A DNA stretch of 46,202 nt from Pseudomonadota bacterium (GTDB taxonomy: Bacteria; Pseudomonadota; Gammaproteobacteria; Burkholderiales; Burkholderiaceae_C): contig JAUNHQ010000015.1 of the NCBI GenBank assembly GCA_030535425.1, forward strand, positions 1 to 46,202, given 5' to 3'. Below, piece by piece: positions 2,798 to 30,869 of the stretch (the stretch's first letter is position 1; each line of letters starts with the position of its first letter). Under the pieces are notes generated by a model, which did not search any database, was not told the DNA's origin, and saw only the letters and a program-made list of their open reading frames with translations. The translations under genes and the position numbers were made by a program.

Positions 2798-3547
2798 TCA
2801 GCGCGGCGACTTGTCTTCCACGGGGATCCCACGCGCTTGCAGCCAGGCGCGTACCTTGGCACGGGCGGCCTTGGCTTCGCTGCCCAACATGTTTTCCGAC
2901 GTTCTGAAAAACGAGGGCTGGAAGGTGACTCCCCGCACGTCGGTCAGGCGCGGATTCACGCCCAGCTCAAGCAAGACCGGTACTTGTTCAAAGCTGTTGA
3001 TGCGTGCGGCCACATGTAGCAAGGTGCTGCCCTCACTGTCGCGCGCGTGGATGTTGGCACCGGCTTTCAGCAGCAAATCAAAATTGGCCTGGGTGTTACG
3101 ACCCAGGGCGGGGAACAGCGGGGTACGGCCCATGGCGTCCTGCACCTCGGTGAGCGTGCCACGTCGCAAGAACTCCTTGAGCCAGCGGCTGTCTTCGAGC
3201 ATGGCCGCCAGGTGCATGGAAGTGGTGCGGTAGCTGCCGCGATAAGCCGGATCGGCGCCCAGGTCCAGCAAGGTGATGAAGGCTGTCCAGTTGTCTGTGA
3301 GCATGGCCATGTCCAGCACGTTTTTCTCTTTGGCGTTGATGGCCGTAAGACTGGCACCCTGGGCCAGCTGCTGGCGGGCGGCGGCCTTGTCGCCACGTGC
3401 GGCGGCTTCAAACAAGGCGGCTTCCTTGGGGGATGCGAAGGCTTCAGGGTTCATGTGGGGGCTGGATGGCTGACCACAGGCAGGCAACGCCAGCGCGGCC
3501 AGCAGGGCCAGTGCCCAACGTCGCCTGCAAGCATGGATCGTCCGCAT
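2798..3547 (-). CDS. Ankyrin-repeat lipoprotein (copy 2), putative immunity protein
   Basis: A 249-residue exported ankyrin protein. ATG 3547 opens a short signal peptide ending in ALPACGQ, a lipobox with Cys as the lipidated residue. Ankyrin-like units follow: AALFEAAARGDKAAARQQLA, a unit around VLDMAMLTDNWTAFITLLDLGADP, one around TSMHLAAMLEDSRWLKEFL, then LLLKAGANIHARD and a last unit before the Lys/Arg-rich tail. It is the downstream member of a tandem pair; the core is nearly identical to the upstream copy while the last third has diverged. It lies 15 bases after that gene, downstream of a lipase on the same strand. An immunity role is inference. Confidence 0.8.
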   Translation of the reverse strand: MRTIHACRRRWALALLAALALPACGQPSSPHMNPEAFASPKEAALFEAAARGDKAAARQQLAQGASLTAINAKEKNVLDMAMLTDNWTAFITLLDLGADPAYRGSYRTTSMHLAAMLEDSRWLKEFLRRGTLTEVQDAMGRTPLFPALGRNTQANFDLLLKAGANIHARDSEGSTLLHVAARINSFEQVPVLLELGVNPRLTDVRGVTFQPSFFRTSENMLGSEAKAARAKVRAWLQARGIPVEDKSPR

Positions 3548-3562
3548 GACTTGCAAGCCGCC

Positions 3563-4324
3563 TCAGCGCTGCGGCTCCTCCACGGGAATGCCGCGCGCTT
3601 GCAGCCAGGCGCGTATCTTGGCGCGGGCTGCCCTGGCTTCGATGCCCAGCATGTCTTCCGGGGTCATGAAAACACCGGACTGAAAGGTTTTTCCGCGCTG
3701 ATCAGTCAGACGTGGATCTATACCCATTTCCAGCAAGGTCACTACCTGCTCCAGGCTGTTGATGGCGGCTGCTTCGTGCAGCAAGGTGCTGCCCTCACTG
3801 TCACGCGCGTGAATGTTGGCGCCGGCTTTGAGCAGCAAATCAAAATTGGCCTGGGTGTTGCGACCCAGGGCGGGAAACAACGGGGTTTGGCCCATGGAAT
3901 CCTGCACCTCGGTGGATGCGCCACGCTGCAAAAACTCCTTGAGCCAGCGGCTGTCTTCGAGCATGGCCGCCAAGTGCATGGAAGTGGTGCGGTAGCTGCC
4001 CCGGTAGGCCGGATCGGCCCCCAGGTCCAGCAAGGTGATGAAGGCTGTCCAGTTGCCCGCGAGCATGGCAACGTCCAGCACGTTACTTTCCTTGGCGTTG
4101 ATGGCCGTGAGGCTGGCGCCCTGGGCCAGTTGCTGGCGGGCGGCGGCCATGTCGCCCCGTACGGCGGCTTCAAACAGGGCAGCTTCCTTGGGAGATGCGA
4201 AGGCTTCGGGGTTCATGCGGGGGCTGGATGACTGGCCGCAGGCCGGCTGCACCAGCGCGGCCAGCAAGGCCAGTGCCAGCGCGCGGCGGGAGGCCAGCGG
4301 GGGTGAAAAAGCTTTCTTAACCAT
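3563..4324 (-). CDS. Ankyrin-repeat lipoprotein (copy 1), putative immunity protein
   Basis: A 253-residue ankyrin protein, the first of two tandem paralogues. I chose ATG 4324 because it gives a compact lipoprotein signal (KK positive start, ALALALLAALVQPACGQ with lipobox Cys); longer starts up to 4408 add sequence without features. About four ankyrin units follow, the best being TSMHLAAMLEDSRWLKEFLQ and ANFDLLLKAGANIHARD. The first lies 94 bases after the lipase stop on the same strand, so the three genes may form one transcript. Ankyrin proteins bind other proteins; location at the outer or inner membrane facing the periplasm suits a protector against a periplasm-acting lipase. That role is inferred from context only. 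Confidence 0.8.
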   Translation of the reverse strand: MVKKAFSPPLASRRALALALLAALVQPACGQSSSPRMNPEAFASPKEAALFEAAVRGDMAAARQQLAQGASLTAINAKESNVLDVAMLAGNWTAFITLLDLGADPAYRGSYRTTSMHLAAMLEDSRWLKEFLQRGASTEVQDSMGQTPLFPALGRNTQANFDLLLKAGANIHARDSEGSTLLHEAAAINSLEQVVTLLEMGIDPRLTDQRGKTFQSGVFMTPEDMLGIEARAARAKIRAWLQARGIPVEEPQR

Positions 4325-4418
4325 GTGGCGAATCAAGGGCCGCGGCGCAGCGCCAGGCGACATCCGCACGGGTGCGCCGTGGGGCCGGCACGCGCGAACA
4401 GCCGCCAAGCAAGAAAGA

Positions 4419-5942
4419 TTATCGGCTGAAGGGGTTGAGTCGGCTGTTCAGCCAGTTGCCCAGTTCAGCCAGCCGGTCTGTTGCCCATTGCACACCATCA
4501 GCCGCCCGGTCGCTTGTCCACTGCGCGCCATCGCCGAGCTTGTCCATACCCGTGGCCACCCAGGCGCCTGCGCCATCGACAAGCTGGTTGGTGTAATAGC
4601 CCAAGGTTTCCACCCCCGTGGCCAGGGTTTGGGCGGGGCTTCCCAGCACGGAACCGCGCGTTTCATTGCGCAGGGCGTTGCCCGCCAGCGTGGTGCCTTC
4701 CATGAGCAGGTCGCCCACGGCATCGGTGCCTTCCTTGACGATGCTGGCCCCGGCGTCGAGCACGCCGTCGGCGGCGCTGCCCGTCAGCTTGACACTTGCC
4801 TGGATAGGTTTGCCCTGTGCCAGCTCGGTGCGTGCGATGGCGCCAGCTTCGTCCCAGGTCTGGCCAAGGGCACCACTGACCCCCTGGTAAGCCTGATACC
4901 CGTTGACGCCGATGGAAATCGCGCCTTTCAGGCCTGATTCGATCGTGTCTTCTATATGGTTGAGCGTGGGCGGAGGGCTTGGCGGGCGCTGGATGGGCAT
5001 GCCCAGGCGCAGGCTTTCCACATAGGCTTGATGGCTGCCACCGCCGCCGTGCAGGGCGCCCAGCCCGGTCACGCCCGGCGGGGCGGCCACGCGCAGTTCA
5101 TGGCCCAGGGCTTCGGGCAGCGCGCCAACACCAGGCAGCTGCTGGGCGGCCGTGAGCGGCTCGCCCGCCACGTTGTAGCGGCGGATCTGGCCGCTGTGGG
5201 CCAGGGTGTCGCGCGCCTGGTTGGGGCTGGCAAAGCCCAGCTCGCGCAAGGTGTTGTCGCTCAGGCCTGCAGCGTTGAAGGTGACGCCGGGCACGCCTGT
5301 TTTAAGCATGGCAGCCGAGGCCAGGCCACCACCCAGCGAGTGGCCAGTGAAGGCCACGTTACCTGGGCCGAAAGTATCAACAGCAACTTTTGCCAATTTC
5401 ATAGCCTGTTGATACTGCTCCACCGACAAACCCATGCCTTGCCCCAGGTTGGCGCGCGCATCGGTGCCGGGCCCCAGGAACTGGCCGTTGTCGTCAAACC
5501 TGCGCCACTTGTCGTCGGTGCCGCGAAAGGCCACCACGTATTGACCCCGGTCGTTTTGGTAGATGGCCGCGTCGAAGCCTGTGCGTGATGGGTTGAGCAA
5601 CTCCGACTTGATCGGAATGCGATGGCCTTCGCGATCCACCAGCTGGCCGCTTTCTGGATCGGGTCGCAAACGGTGCCAGCCGGCGGCGGCCAGGTCGGCT
5701 TCGGATCGGGTGCAGGTCAGATCCGGGGCGTCGGACGCGTACACGTCGTTGGCCATCATGCTCAGGTGCAAGTCCAGCTCAGGCTGCGGCTGGGTGCCTT
5801 TGACGCGGTTGGCAAAAGTGCCATCGCCCCTGGGGTAGCCCCGGGAATGGTCGACGGACGAAGACGCGCCGCTGTGGGTGCTGGCCTGCAGTGGTGTGGC
5901 GCGCTGCGGTGCGCCAGCGTGGGCGCCGATGGGCTGGGCCAT
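4419..5942 (-). CDS. Lipase class 3-type protein, putative secreted effector
   Basis: A 507-residue protein with no classical signal peptide. Residues 1-65 are low-complexity (Ala/Ser/Gln-rich). The alpha/beta-hydrolase domain spans about 60-310: VVAFRGTDD at 136-144 provides the oxyanion region, GHSLGG at 200-205 holds the nucleophile Ser202, and YNVAGEPLT (Glu261) and SHQAYVESL (His304) are candidates for the other catalytic residues. Residues 330-507 are Gly/Ala-rich amphipathic repeats such as DGAQWTSDRAADGVQWATDR, of unknown function. Two ankyrin lipoprotein genes follow on the same strand. Lipases of this build occur among bacterial toxins delivered by secretion systems, with membrane-anchored immunity proteins next door. 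Lipase fold is confident; effector role is inference. Confidence 0.78.
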   Translation of the reverse strand: MAQPIGAHAGAPQRATPLQASTHSGASSSVDHSRGYPRGDGTFANRVKGTQPQPELDLHLSMMANDVYASDAPDLTCTRSEADLAAAGWHRLRPDPESGQLVDREGHRIPIKSELLNPSRTGFDAAIYQNDRGQYVVAFRGTDDKWRRFDDNGQFLGPGTDARANLGQGMGLSVEQYQQAMKLAKVAVDTFGPGNVAFTGHSLGGGLASAAMLKTGVPGVTFNAAGLSDNTLRELGFASPNQARDTLAHSGQIRRYNVAGEPLTAAQQLPGVGALPEALGHELRVAAPPGVTGLGALHGGGGSHQAYVESLRLGMPIQRPPSPPPTLNHIEDTIESGLKGAISIGVNGYQAYQGVSGALGQTWDEAGAIARTELAQGKPIQASVKLTGSAADGVLDAGASIVKEGTDAVGDLLMEGTTLAGNALRNETRGSVLGSPAQTLATGVETLGYYTNQLVDGAGAWVATGMDKLGDGAQWTSDRAADGVQWATDRLAELGNWLNSRLNPFSR

Positions 5943-26655: not shown

Positions 26656-27651
26656 TCAGCGCTTGTCCAAGCCAGTGGGCGGCCAGTTTTCCAGCTTCAT
26701 GCCCAGGGTCAGGCCGCGCGAAGCCAGCACTTCCTTGATCTCGTTGAGCGACTTTCGGCCCAGGTTGGGGGTCTTGAGCAGCTCGTTCTCGGTGCGCTGG
26801 ATCAGATCGCCGATGTAGTAGATGTTTTCGGCTTTCAGGCAGTTGGCCGAACGCACTGTCAGCTCCAGCTCATCCACCGGGCGCAGCAGGATCGGATCAA
26901 ACGTCGCCGCACCGCCGCGCTGCGAAGTCGGAGCAAACACTTCGTCAATGGCGCTGCCTTCGAGTTGTGCGAACACCGCCAGCTGCTCTACCAAGATCTT
27001 GGCGGAAGCACGAACAGCGTCTTCAGCGGAGATGGCACCATTGGTTTCGATCTCCATCACCAGCTTGTCCAGATCGGTGCGTTGCTCGACGCGGGCATTT
27101 TCCACCGCGTAGCTCACCCGCTTGACGGGCGAAAAAGAAGCATCCAGAACAATACGGCCAATGGACTTGGTGGGCTCATCCGCATAGCGGCGCAGCGTAC
27201 CCGGCACATAGCCACGCCCCTTTTCCACCTTGACCTGCATATCAAGACGGCCGCCTTGGGAAAGGTTGGCGATGACATGCTCAGGATTGATGATTTCCAC
27301 ATCGTGAGGCGCCTGGATGTCAGCTGCCGTCACAACACCTTCGCCCTCCTTGCGCAGGCTCAGGGTTACCTCATCGCGGTTATGGAGCTTGAATACCACA
27401 CCCTTGAGATTGAGCAGGATGTTGACCACATCCTCCTGCACGCCGTCGATGCTCGAATACTCGTGCAGCACGCCAGCAATGGTGACCTCAGTCGGCGCAT
27501 AGCCCACCATGGACGACAGCAACACGCGGCGCAGCGCATTGCCAAGCGTGTGTCCGTATCCACGCTCAAAGGGTTCAAGCGTGACTTTGGCTTTGTGATC
27601 GGCCAACGGTTCAACATTGATCGCTTTGGGTTTCAGCAATTGGGTTTGCAT
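26656..27651 (-). CDS. rpoA: RNA polymerase alpha subunit
   Basis: A 331-residue alpha subunit. The N-terminal dimerisation domain includes [20 protein letters not shown], which contacts the beta subunits; the C-terminal domain from about 250 carries [20 protein letters not shown] and [20 protein letters not shown], which bind UP elements and activators. The linker is normal. Part of the alpha-operon end rpsM-rpsK-rpsD-rpoA-rplQ. The 111-base space from rpsD contains an 8-base-stem hairpin (27712-27732). Confidence 0.98.
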
Positions 27652-27711
27652 TCTCTAGACTTCCTCTCAATACCCCCGGCTCGTTACACCGGTAAGGCTG
27701 GTGAAGCACCA

Positions 27712-27732
27712 AACCCGCCATGATGGCGGGTT
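27712..27732 (-). other. Hairpin between rpsD and rpoA
   Basis: AACCCGCC (27712-27719) pairs with GGCGGGTT (27725-27732) around a five-base loop. No T run follows on the minus strand, so it may be a processing or attenuation site inside the operon. Confidence 0.4.
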
Positions 27733-27762
27733 CGGAACGAAGGTGGCGCTATACCCCAAGGA

Positions 27763-28386
27763 TCAGCGCGAATACAGTTCGACGATCAGCGATTCGTTGA
27801 TGTCCGCGCCAAACTCGTCACGATCAGGCGTCTTCTTGAAAGTGCCTTCGGCCTTGTCGGCGTTGACCTCGACCCAAGCCGGGAAACCCACCTGAGCTGC
27901 CAATTGCAACGCCTCTTGCACACGGGTCTGGGCACGAGATTTTTCACGCACGGCTACCACATCGCCCGCCTTGACCAGATAAGAAGGAATGTTGACCTGT
28001 TGGCCATTGACCGTGATCGCCTTGTGCGACACAAGTTGACGCGCTTCGGCACGGGTAGAGCCAAAACCCATGCGATAAACCACGTTGTCCAGACGCGACT
28101 CCAGCAAGAACAGCAGGTTGGCACCGGTATTGCCGCGACGGCGATCCGCTTCCTCGAAATAGCGGCGGAACTGCTTTTCGAGCACACCATACATGCGCTT
28201 GACTTTTTGCTTTTCGCGCAGTTGCAAGCCATAGTCAGACGTACGCTGACCAGAGGTGCGGCCATGTTGACCTGGTTTACTGTCGAACTTGGCCTTGTCA
28301 CTGATAGAGCGGCGCGCACTCTTCAGGAACAAGTCAGTGCCTTCACGGCGGGAAAGTTTGGCCTTGGGGCCGAGGTAACGTGCCAC
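27763..28386 (-). CDS. rpsD: 30S ribosomal protein S4
   Basis: A 207-residue S4, a primary 16S rRNA binder and, in enterobacteria, repressor of the alpha operon. [20 protein letters not shown] opens the protein; the S4 RNA-binding domain contains [20 protein letters not shown] and [20 protein letters not shown]. It lacks the four-Cys zinc motif. The 143-base space before it, large for this operon, contains a hairpin. Confidence 0.98.
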
Positions 28387-28485
28387 GGTAGCTTCCTTGA
28401 ATCAAACTGCTCCGACACTTCAAGTGGCGGAGGAGCCGTTAGATGATGCGCCACCCAACGGCGGTGGGCTTATAAGAAAATATTA

Positions 28486-28505
28486 AGCGCGCGGCTCAGC
28501 GCGCG
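28486..28505 (-). other. GC hairpin followed by T-rich run between rpsK and rpsD
   Basis: AGCGCGC (28486-28492) pairs with GCGCGCT (28499-28505). On the minus strand the stem is followed by TAATATTTTC, so it resembles a weak terminator or attenuator inside the ribosomal operon. Confidence 0.45.
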
Positions 28506-28529
28506 CTGGTTATAGATGCTGCAGTGCGC

Positions 28530-28934
28530 TTAAATGCGGCGACGCTTTTGCGGCCGGCAACCATTGTGCGGAATCGGCGTCACATCGGAAATTGAGGTGA
28601 TTCGAATACCCAAAGCAGCCAGAGCGCGCACGGAAGACTCACGGCCAGGGCCGGGGCCTTTGATTTCTACATCAAGATTCTTGATGCCCTGATCCATGGC
28701 TGCACGGCCAGCTTGCTCAGAAGCCACCTGTGCCGCAAACGGCGTGGACTTACGTGAACCCTTGAAGCCCTGCCCCCCCGAAGAGGCCCAAGACAAGGCA
28801 TTACCCTGGCGATCAGTAATGGTGATGATGGTGTTATTAAACGACGCATGCACGTGCGCGATGCCATCCGAAATATTTTTACGGACTTTCTTGCGGACAC
28901 GCTGGGCGGCGTTGCTGGCAGGAGACTTGGCCAT
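28530..28934 (-). CDS. rpsK: 30S ribosomal protein S11
   Basis: A 134-residue S11 of the small-subunit platform. Characteristic segments: [57 protein letters not shown] and the ending [20 protein letters not shown] plus RRI. The N-terminal [20 protein letters not shown] is typical of betaproteobacteria. It lies 18 bases after rpsM. Confidence 0.98.
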
Positions 28935-28952
28935 GGTGTGTGCGTTCCTTGA

Positions 28953-29318
28953 TTATTTTTTCAGCGCCTGCGCTGCCTTGCGCGGGCCCTTGCGGGTACG
29001 TGCGTTGGTACGTGTGCGCTGGCCACGCATAGGCAGACCGCGGCGGTGACGGAAACCCCGATAGCAACCGATATCCATCAGGCGCTTGATATTCATCGTG
29101 GTTTCCCGACGCAGATCACCTTCGATCAGATACTGAGCAATGGCGTCGCGGAGCTTTTCTTGATCAGCATCCGTCAGATCTTTCACTTTTTTGGCATAAG
29201 GAATACCACAGGCCTCGCAAATTTTGCGGGCGCGCGAGCGACCAATGCCATAAATGGCCGTCAAGCCGATTTCAGCGTGCTTGTGCGGCGGAATATTGAT
29301 ACCAGCAATACGTGCCAT
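28953..29318 (-). CDS. rpsM: 30S ribosomal protein S13
   Basis: A 121-residue S13 of the small-subunit head, contacting P-site tRNA through its basic tail. [20 protein letters not shown] begins the protein; [17 protein letters not shown] forms the helix-hairpin region; [20 protein letters not shown] is the tail. Start ATG 29318 is conserved. It follows rpmJ in the usual order. Confidence 0.98.
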
Positions 29319-29360
29319 GTGTACTTATCCTATGAACGTGCATGTAGGCAGGCGCCCGGC

Positions 29361-29474
29361 TCAGCCCTGGCGCTGCTTATGGCGCGGATCGGTGCAAATC
29401 ACACGTACCACACCCTTGCGGCGGATGATTTTGCAGTTGCGGCAAATTTTCTTTACCGAAGCTGAAACTCTCAT
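29361..29474 (-). CDS. rpmJ: 50S ribosomal protein L36
   Basis: A 37-residue zinc-ribbon ribosomal protein: [20 protein letters not shown] then [17 protein letters not shown]. The zinc ligands are Cys11, Cys14, Cys27 and His32, so this is the zinc-binding form. ATG at 29472-29474 follows TAGGAGAG. It sits between secY and rpsM, where infA also lies in many relatives; infA is absent here. Confidence 0.97.
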
Positions 29475-29549
29475 TTCACTCTCCTAAAACCTTCTTGCTC
29501 TTGGGCTTCTTGACTTCTGCCCAGCCCCTGAAGACAAACCCTGCTTGGC

Positions 29550-30869
29550 TCAACCCGGCAGCACCGTTTTGAAGCTCGCTTTTTTCAATAGCGACTCATA
29601 CTGCTGGCTCATCATGTAGTTCTGCACTTGAGCCATGAAGTCCATTGTGACCACCACCAGAATCAGCAGTGATGTGCCACCAAAATAAAACGGTACGTTG
29701 TAGCGCAGAATCAGAAACTCCGGCAATAAGCACACGGCCGTGATATAGATGGCACCTGCAAATGTCAAGCGCATCAAAATTTTGTCGATGTACTTAGCTG
29801 TTTGCTCCCCTGGGCGAATACCCGGGATGAACGCTCCACTTTTTTTCAGATTGTCTGCTGTCTCACGACTATTGAACACCAAAGCCGTATAGAAAAAGCA
29901 GAAAAAGATGATCGCGGCTGCATAGAGCATGACGTACACCGGCTGACCAGGAGCCAGCGCAGCAGCCATATCCTTGAGCCAGCGCATGGATTCCCCAGTA
30001 CTGAACCAACCCACAATCGTCGCTGGCAACAGAATGATCGATGAAGCAAAGATGGGCGGAATCACACCGGCCATGTTCAGTTTAAGGGGCAAATGCGACG
30101 ACTGGCCACCATAAACCTTATTACCCACCTGGCGCCGTGCGTAGTTCACCAGAATCCGCCGCTGGCCACGCTCGATAAACACCACAAAGTACGTCACCAC
30201 GCAGACCAGCAGCACAATGAACAATGACACGATGATGCTCATGGCCCCTGTGCGCACCAGCTCCAGCAAACCACCTATGGCGCTCGGCAAACCTGCCGCA
30301 ATGCCAGCAAAGATGAGTATCGAGATGCCGTTACCCAAGCCACGCTCAGTGATTTGCTCACCCAGCCACATCAAAAACATGGTTCCGGCTGTCAAGCTGA
30401 CCACTGCCGTCACCCGAAATCCCCAACCAGGATTGATAACCAATCCCTGCGACGCTTCCAATGCCACGGCAATGCCAAAGGACTGAAACAACGCCAAAGC
30501 TAGCGTGCCATAGCGGGTGTACTGGGTAATCTTGCGCCGCCCAGCCTCGCCTTCCTTCTTCATTTGCTCGAAGGTCGGCACGACATAGGTCATCAACTGC
30601 ATGATGATCGACGCCGAGATATACGGCATGATGCCCAAGGCAAACACGGTAAATCGCGAGAGTGCACCACCCGAGAACATGTTAAACAGGTTCAGGATGC
30701 CGCCCTGCTGCCCTTCAAACAGCTGACGAAGCTGATCCGGGTTGATACCGGGCACGGGAATATGCGCGCCGATGCGATACACCACCAGCGCGAGCAGCAA
30801 AAAGACCAAACGACGACGCAGGTCGCCGTATTTGCCGGTCTTTGCGATTTGCGGTCCGCTGGTAGCCAC
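29550..30869 (-). CDS. secY: Protein translocase subunit SecY
   Basis: A 439-residue inner-membrane channel protein with about ten membrane segments. [20 protein letters not shown] is the first; [40 protein letters not shown] and [20 protein letters not shown] are signature regions (the plug/gate and cytoplasmic loops); [15 protein letters not shown] lies near the SecA-contacting loop. It follows rplO by 35 bases as in most spc operons, and rpmJ follows. Confidence 0.98.

What the first reader, a model, noticed from the sequence alone, without database searches (positions are those of the whole stretch)
2798..5942. Lipase followed by two ankyrin lipoproteins: a putative antibacterial effector-immunity module
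Seen: an alpha/beta-hydrolase with GHSLGG, no signal peptide and a Gly/Ala-rich repeat C-terminus, then two co-directional lipoproteins with ankyrin repeats. Known: phospholipase effectors of contact-dependent secretion systems are commonly encoded next to periplasmic or membrane-anchored immunity proteins, some with repeat folds. Inference: the lipase is delivered into rival cells' periplasm and the lipoproteins protect the producer. The pairing of this lipase build with duplicated ankyrin lipoproteins is not one I can name from existing families.
Basis: partly seen in the sequence, partly recalled or inferred. Interest (0 to 1): 0.75.

Follow-up and report, generated by a model that had tools for sequence, protein, structure and literature searches.

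The report
Phospholipase toxin with duplicated ankyrin antidotes
This is a bacterial phospholipase toxin gene followed by two ankyrin-repeat antidote genes, a relative of a known contact-toxin pair, but here in a bacterium in which the two usual injection machines were not found, and with signs across the family that the antidote is made in two forms, one outside and one inside the inner membrane.

Summary
In detail: on the minus strand lie a lipase without visible signal peptide (5942..4419) and two tandem ankyrin proteins with export signals (P0003 canonical lipobox, P0002 atypical). The effector-immunity reading is well supported; 'no nameable family' is not. The only convincing solved-structure match of the lipase is E. 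cloacae Tle6, whose immunity protein Tli is an ankyrin lipoprotein (PMC11470151). Fetched relatives with the same C-terminal build have an ankyrin gene downstream in 57 of 57 cases; those with the T4SS signal XVIPCD have it upstream in 16 of 17 loci. T6SS/T4SS delivery is not supported here: TssC and VirB4 were not found in this genome (draft, 88.6% complete) or in two single-contig, 99-100% complete genus-mates with the lipase. The lipase C-terminus is an 11-residue amphipathic repeat. A start codon follows the lipobox in 91 of 92 ankyrin lipoproteins, with a Shine-Dalgarno-like site in 62, predicting a second, cytosolic antidote as shown for Tli; the window's two copies have the ATG but no such site. 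Verdict: new variant of a known kind; delivery unknown.

The parts
4419..5942 (-). Lipase (P0001, 507 aa): short N-terminus, Tle6-like lipase core (about residues 36-315), C-terminal 11-mer repeat domain
5337..5339 (-). Codon of the predicted nucleophile Ser202 in GHSLGG (Ser in 53 of 53 aligned relatives); predicted acid Glu261 (Asp or Glu in 53 of 53); the His is not settled (best column, His298, 32 of 53)
4422..4958 (-). C-terminal amphipathic domain with 11-residue periodicity
3563..4324 (-). Ankyrin protein 1 (P0002 from its likely ATG), export signal with atypical lipobox VQPA^C
4214..4216 (-). In-frame ATG 8 codons after the lipobox Cys of ankyrin 1: candidate internal start, no Shine-Dalgarno-like site in front
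2798..3547 (-). Ankyrin protein 2 (P0003 from its likely ATG), lipoprotein signal LALPA^C
3452..3454 (-). In-frame ATG 8 codons after the lipobox Cys of ankyrin 2: candidate internal start, no Shine-Dalgarno-like site in front

Best explanation
A Tle6-related phospholipase toxin with two tandem ankyrin antidotes. Supported by homology and synteny: the lipase core, its catalytic Ser and acid, and the constant ankyrin partner. Inferred: the lipase folds in the cytosol held by an ankyrin isoform translated from the internal ATG (as shown for E. cloacae Tli), reaches a periplasm by a route that is neither a T6SS nor a VirB-type T4SS in this genus (lysis, leakage or an unsearched exporter), docks on membranes through its 11-mer amphipathic C-terminus and hydrolyses phospholipids, while the lipid-anchored ankyrin form protects the producer and its kin.
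For: Only convincing PDB match of the lipase is 7ubz_B/9cys, 'T6SS lipase effector' (E 4.1e-11; 1.2e-22 with a profile of ten sequences). Ankyrin gene downstream on the same strand, within about 0.7 kb, in 57 of 57 same-build lipases (56 fetched plus the window) and in 12 of 13 short-form relatives; ankyrin gene upstream in 16 of 17 loci of the XVIPCD group; a second such pair in the same genome (C144); ankyrin beside 11 of 11 lipases fetched from the genus. TssK 0 of 1, TssC 0 of 6; among 7 genus-mates with a lipase TssC 0 of 7 and VirB4 1 of 7. Internal start codon in 91 of 92 ankyrin lipoproteins and in 30 of 31 clusters at 70% identity, Shine-Dalgarno-like site in 62 of 92; rare codons in that linker, GGA 57% against 3%, CAA 64% against 12%. 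11-residue periodicity and hydrophobic-moment z 4.8 for P0001, median 6.4 of 53.
Against: No expression, activity, binding or localisation data. The window's two ankyrins have the internal ATG but no Shine-Dalgarno-like site. The ankyrin lipoproteins are related (only 2 clusters at 50% identity), so their start codons are not independent events. This genome is a draft, 88.6% complete. Of 43 genomes with this build 34 do have TssC or VirB4, so those systems could still be the ancestral carriers. No export route is shown. A probable relative in L. enzymogenes, Le1637, was not needed for killing in T4SS co-cultures but was needed for defence (PMC10989847), which plain predation does not explain.
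Confidence: 0.62

Rival explanations
1. An ordinary T6SS or X-T4SS effector-immunity pair; the machine is missing from the draft or was lost recently.
For: Homology to a T6SS effector; 34 of 43 genomes with this build have TssC or VirB4.
Against: 0 of 53 scanned members carry XVIPCD. Single-contig genus-mates G704 (99%) and G710 (100%) have the lipase and neither TssC nor VirB4. 9 of 43 genomes have neither. The lipase is N-terminal, unlike Tle6.
Confidence: 0.18
2. A house-kept toxin-antidote device for defence: the lipase stays in the cell and acts when a rival breaches the envelope, in the manner proposed for Lysobacter Le1637/Le1636.
For: Le1637, a phospholipase A1 without XVIPCD beside a gamma-glutamyltranspeptidase gene, needed its catalytic residues for defence against E. 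cloacae and was not needed for T4SS killing (PMC10989847). The gene order gamma-glutamyltranspeptidase, short-form lipase (Ser-acid spacing 57, Glu), ankyrin occurs in L075 and L078. No T6SS or T4SS needed.
Against: That Le1637 is a member is inferred from neighbours and residue spacing; its sequence was not compared, and with the starts I chose the nucleophile of L075 is not residue 186. The short form lacks the C-terminal repeat domain. The envelope-breach step is mine, not the paper's.
Confidence: 0.15
3. A lipid-metabolism enzyme with an ankyrin regulator, not a toxin.
For: No toxicity shown for this protein; no secretion genes among the window genes looked at (first 12 kb by eye; ten ORFs by Pfam).
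Against: Closest characterised relative is an antibacterial effector. Patchy presence in the genus (own genome and 7 of 24 genus-mates searched), tandem duplication and XVIPCD-fused relatives suit conflict genes.
Confidence: 0.05

Closest known systems
Tle6/Tli (Tle and Tli of Enterobacter cloacae; PDB 7ubz, 9cys; PMC11470151, PMC10294624)
   Same: Homologous lipase core, adjacent ankyrin antidote with an export signal, and a start codon just after the signal, as needed for a dual-localised Tli
   Different: Lipase is N-terminal with a C-terminal 11-mer domain instead of C-terminal after a 171-residue N-terminal part; no T6SS found in this genome; no strongly conserved Lys that could serve the Arg-Lys glycation crosslink
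XVIPCD lipase effectors of the bacteria-killing X-T4SS (Lysobacteraceae; perhaps TfcA of Stenotrophomonas, PMC8262851, sequence not compared)
   Same: Homologous lipase core and homologous ankyrin partner (16 of 17 loci)
   Different: XVIPCD C-terminus and ankyrin gene upstream; the window lipase has neither
Le1637/Le1636 of Lysobacter enzymogenes OH11 (PMC10989847)
   Same: Phospholipase A1 toxin without XVIPCD, bound and neutralised by the neighbouring gene product; probably the short form seen in L075 and L078
   Different: Membership inferred, sequence not compared; the short form lacks the 11-mer domain

Membership tests
Tle6/Tli | Lipase domain homologous to E. cloacae Tle6 | tested here: met
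Tle6/Tli | Adjacent ankyrin-repeat immunity gene | tested here: met
   immunity function itself not tested
Tle6/Tli | Immunity protein is a lipoprotein | tested here: inconclusive
   By pattern: P0003 canonical lipobox; P0002 has Gln at -3, unique among 81
Tle6/Tli | Cytosolic antidote from an internal start | tested here: inconclusive
   ATG present in both window copies, no Shine-Dalgarno-like site there; site present in 62 of 92 family members and in the second copy of this genome
Tle6/Tli | T6SS in the genome | tested here: not met
   TssK and TssC not found; draft, 88.6% complete; genus-mates with a lipase 0 of 7 for TssC
Tle6/Tli | N-terminal part followed by C-terminal lipase domain | tested here: not met
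   Core at residues about 36-315, then a C-terminal domain
Tle6/Tli | Arg-Lys methylglyoxal crosslink residues | tested here: inconclusive
   Best Lys column 19 of 53; the alignment is not structure-based
X-T4SS effector (X-Tfe) | C-terminal XVIPCD (PF20410) | tested here: not met
   Not among the matches of P0001; 0 of 53 members, against 19 of 20 in the other group
X-T4SS effector (X-Tfe) | VirB/D4 T4SS in the genome | tested here: not met
   VirB4 not found in G000 or G001; G000 is a draft; VirD4 not searched
Le1637/Le1636 | Sequence homology to Le1637 | not tested
   Sequence not held; only neighbour order and Ser-acid spacing compared

The most novel reading that the evidence does not exclude
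A superfamily of phospholipase-ankyrin weapons, found with T6SS, with X-T4SS and in genomes where neither was found, shares a built-in dual-start antidote gene: one mRNA gives a membrane-anchored protector and a cytosolic chaperone-activator. In the window lineage the antidote gene was duplicated and one copy's lipobox has drifted, so the two roles may be splitting between paralogs, and the toxin uses an amphipathic 11-mer C-terminus and an unknown, T6SS/T4SS-independent exit.
Probability: 0.45. Interest if true: 0.75.

Novelty: new variant of a known kind. Interest (0 to 1): 0.58.

Why it matters
It links three separately described toxin sets (one of them by inference) through one lipase core and one antidote fold, predicts from sequence alone that the antidote is made in two places across the family, and points to genomes where an effector of this kind exists without the injectors it is known to ride on. 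Each point is testable with simple constructs in laboratory E. coli.

Tried and rejected
Rejected: XVIPCD effector (PF20410 absent from the matches of 53 of 53 members at E <= 0.1). Rejected: the C-terminal repeat as a general delivery domain. In 149 Lysobacteraceae genomes the 21 matches with E below 1e-30 all overlap lipase genes already known; many of them are rows of the model itself, so the point is that no strong match lies elsewhere. Nine weaker matches (E 1e-11 to 5e-5) lie elsewhere and were not examined, and at most 23 candidates per genome were scored. Rejected as chance: Met near the lipobox (66 of 75 against 202 of 1277 control windows in the same proteins). An outside control of lipoprotein-like ORFs was small and noisy: ATG in 5 of 19, any start codon in 10 of 19, against 63 and 68 of 69 ankyrin ones by the same pattern; so the ATG is the telling part, and the nine GTG or TTG cases are weak by themselves. 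Led nowhere: plasmid search (11 records, none with 80% coverage, one annotated XVIPCD); PADLOC (ankyrin-part matches only); literature searches, mostly unrelated hits.

Limits of the searches: searches scored at most 3 and 4 candidates per genome, so copies can be missed; of the matches I fetched 40 regions beside the tool's own loci. Builds A and B were first set apart by which regions I fetched for each and then checked by Pfam. A2 holds 53 of the 57 build-A sequences (near-copies left out). Lipase fragments under 140 bits cut by locus ends (in L050, L051, L070) were left out of the build C count; all three have an ankyrin.

Rows dropped in the start-codon counts: re-fetched duplicate loci (L042-L049, L051, L056, L012), ankyrin matches under 180 bits, identical N-termini (81 to 75), and ten ankyrins without a lipobox (L092 twice, L094-L099, L102, L103). 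Eight of these ten appear to start at the equivalent Met with no signal; two have other signals. One lipoprotein (L090) was added by hand after the pattern missed it. In one search L156 (same genome as L001) and L157 (cut by a contig end) were left out, and the one exception (L158) was kept. The distant ankyrins of the order (L013-L015, L031, L033, L035) are not in the 92; in four of these loci an ATG follows the signal, with a Shine-Dalgarno-like site in L013 and L035 and not in L014 and L015.
Full report
What is there. On the minus strand the window encodes a 507-residue lipase (5942..4419) followed by two ankyrin proteins. From their likely ATG starts these span 4324..3563 and 3547..2798. 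The lipase carries GHSLGG and a Lipase_3 match just under the cut-off; both neighbours match ankyrin repeats above cut-off. Signal peptides and lipoboxes were judged by pattern and by eye. Of ten other window ORFs scanned, five matched Pfam: RpoA, RpsD, SecY, DprA and bactofilin. Nearer the module I recognise, from memory of their sequences, transporter genes and nothing of a secretion system. The own genome (3.31 Mb, 144 contigs, 88.6% complete) holds a second lipase with its own ankyrin lipoprotein on contig C144.

What it is related to. In the solved structures the lipase has one convincing match, the E. cloacae 'T6SS lipase effector' 7ubz_B/9cys (E 4.1e-11; 1.2e-22 with a profile of ten sequences). 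I read part 1 of 9 and passages of PMC11470151: that lipase, for which the name Tle6 is proposed, is bound by an ankyrin immunity protein with six repeats; Tle6 effectors are said to be invariably encoded with ankyrin immunity proteins; and Tli is made both as a periplasmic lipoprotein and, from alternative starts after the signal, as a cytosolic form required for secretion of active toxin. Passages of PMC10294624 say the same of Tli.

The family. A pattern scan of one genome for each of 84,980 species gave 5 relatives, each with an ankyrin gene next door, the four Luteimonas ones with two pairs each. Searches of 399 genomes of the order (18 with a match at E <= 1e-10) and 297 of the Lysobacteraceae (99 at E <= 1e-20) were followed by fetching 40 regions. 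Three builds appear. Build A, the window's, has a long C-terminus: the ankyrin gene lies downstream on the same strand in all 56 fetched cases and in the window. Build C is short: 12 of 13 have it downstream (not L111). Build B has XVIPCD in 19 of 20 members, and an ankyrin gene lies upstream in 16 of 17 loci (in L108 no ankyrin match reached 180 bits). None of 53 build-A members scanned matched XVIPCD. In the order search 15 more distant lipase loci, about 3 kb each, had no ankyrin neighbour, and six others did. A tree of 96 cores puts the window lipase with the Comamonadaceae relative L001 (support 100/100), inside a group of 16 (96/95) that otherwise holds the second copy of this genome and Lysobacteraceae build-A sequences. 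This suggests transfer between families; the root is not placed, build A needs three label changes, and several long branches are unsure.

Delivery. TssK was not found in the own genome, TssC in 0 of 6 genomes (G000 to G005), VirB4 in 4 of 6, all Luteimonas. Of the 46 genomes hold build A: 15 have TssC, 25 have VirB4, 6 have both and 9 have neither, the window's among the nine. The completeness of most of these is not told. In the relatives search 9 of 41 genomes matched: the own genome, 7 of 24 others marked same genus, and one of another family. The 7 genus-mates gave TssC 0 of 7 and VirB4 1 of 7, a partial match in G713 (E 1.7e-11). G704 and G710, single contigs at 99% and 100% completeness, have neither. 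G720 is, by its contig length, the genome of L001. G707 holds a distant short lipase with three tandem ankyrins. So in this genus the module persists without the two injectors tested; other exporters were not searched.

The C-terminal domain. Over 53 build-A members residues repeat at a spacing of 11 (2.31 times shuffles) and 22 (1.80 times), and the hydrophobic moment at 11/3 geometry is high (z 4.8 for the window, median 6.4, minimum 4.0). This is the pattern of synuclein- and apolipoprotein-like surface helices (recalled); three of 53 members match Pfam Synuclein (best E 5.5e-5). In 149 genomes its 21 strong matches all fall in lipase genes. I therefore read it as a membrane-binding part of the toxin rather than a general secretion signal. 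This is inference.

The antidote's second start. In the ankyrin lipoproteins the linker after the lipobox Cys is variable except for a start codon 5 to 13 codons on: 75 of 75 distinct proteins (66 ATG, 7 GTG, 2 TTG). With 11 more from the genus, and near-copies counted, it is 91 of 92, and 30 of 31 clusters at 70% identity (the exception is L158). A Shine-Dalgarno-like motif stands in front of 53 of 75 against 21 of 225 other Met codons of the same genes (Fisher p 3e-24, relatedness ignored), 62 of 92 in the larger set and the majority in 20 of 31 clusters. Codon choice in the linker departs sharply from the gene body: GGA 57% against 3%, CAA 64% against 12%, Arg AGA/AGG/CGA 21 of 41 against 43 of 1164. 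Eight ankyrins of build B lack the signal and appear to begin at the equivalent Met. An outside control is small: ATG in 5 of 19 and any start codon in 10 of 19 lipoprotein-like ORFs. Together this predicts an internally started cytosolic form across the family, the arrangement shown by experiment for E. cloacae Tli. Against it for the window: both window ankyrins, and L001, keep the ATG but have no such motif; the C144 copy has it. I found no paper stating this for the family in searches, which cover open-licence papers only and were judged by their listings.

The duplication. The two window ankyrins are 84% identical over 240 residues. Nucleotide identity is 81 to 94% over most of the mature part but 64% in one 90-base stretch towards the C-terminus. 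P0002 alone among 81 has Gln at -3 of the lipobox. One genus-mate has three tandem ankyrins. A split of roles or of specificities is possible; neither is shown.

A functional precedent with a twist. I read parts 1 to 4 of 6 of PMC10989847. Le1637, a phospholipase A1 lacking XVIPCD, is toxic in E. coli, is bound and neutralised by its neighbour Le1636, and lies beside a gamma-glutamyltranspeptidase gene. It was not needed for killing three prey strains, but it and its catalytic residues S186 and E243 were needed for defence against E. cloacae AA4. In L075 and L078 the order gamma-glutamyltranspeptidase, build-C lipase, ankyrin recurs with a Ser-acid spacing of 57 (Glu) as in Le1637. I infer that Le1637 is build C, but did not compare its sequence, and the start positions do not match exactly. 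Passages of PMC8262851 describe TfcA, a T4SS lipase effector whose immunity protein has a lipoprotein signal; passages of PMC10933484 report that a cytosolic form of another X-T4SS immunity protein protects. A listing shows PMC4686830, on ankyrin-mediated self-protection in Bdellovibrio, which I did not open.

Verdict. A toxin-antidote module is likely, its kind is known, its build and setting are a new variant, and how the toxin leaves the cell is open.

Noticed in passing
G000 contig C144, about 62774-65192 (locus L036): Second lipase-ankyrin pair in the same genome, with a Shine-Dalgarno-like site before the internal ATG of its ankyrin.
   Followed up: yes
L160:499-4401: A distant short lipase followed by three tandem ankyrin lipoproteins (one cluster at 70% identity) in a genus-mate.
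   Followed up: partly
L073, L074, L077, L081: Tandem arrays of three lipase-ankyrin pairs (one short form plus two long forms) in Lysobacteraceae genomes.
   Followed up: partly
window 2798-4408: Both ankyrins match PADLOC model PDC-M72A, a phage-defence candidate, over the ankyrin part only.
   Followed up: no
L092, L094-L099: Ankyrin partners of the XVIPCD-group lipases that appear to lack any signal peptide and would be cytosolic only.
   Followed up: partly
window 26656-30869: The lower-GC stretch holds RpoA, RpsD and SecY genes, so it looks like a housekeeping operon, not an island. A second dip at 39-40 kb was not looked at.
   Followed up: partly
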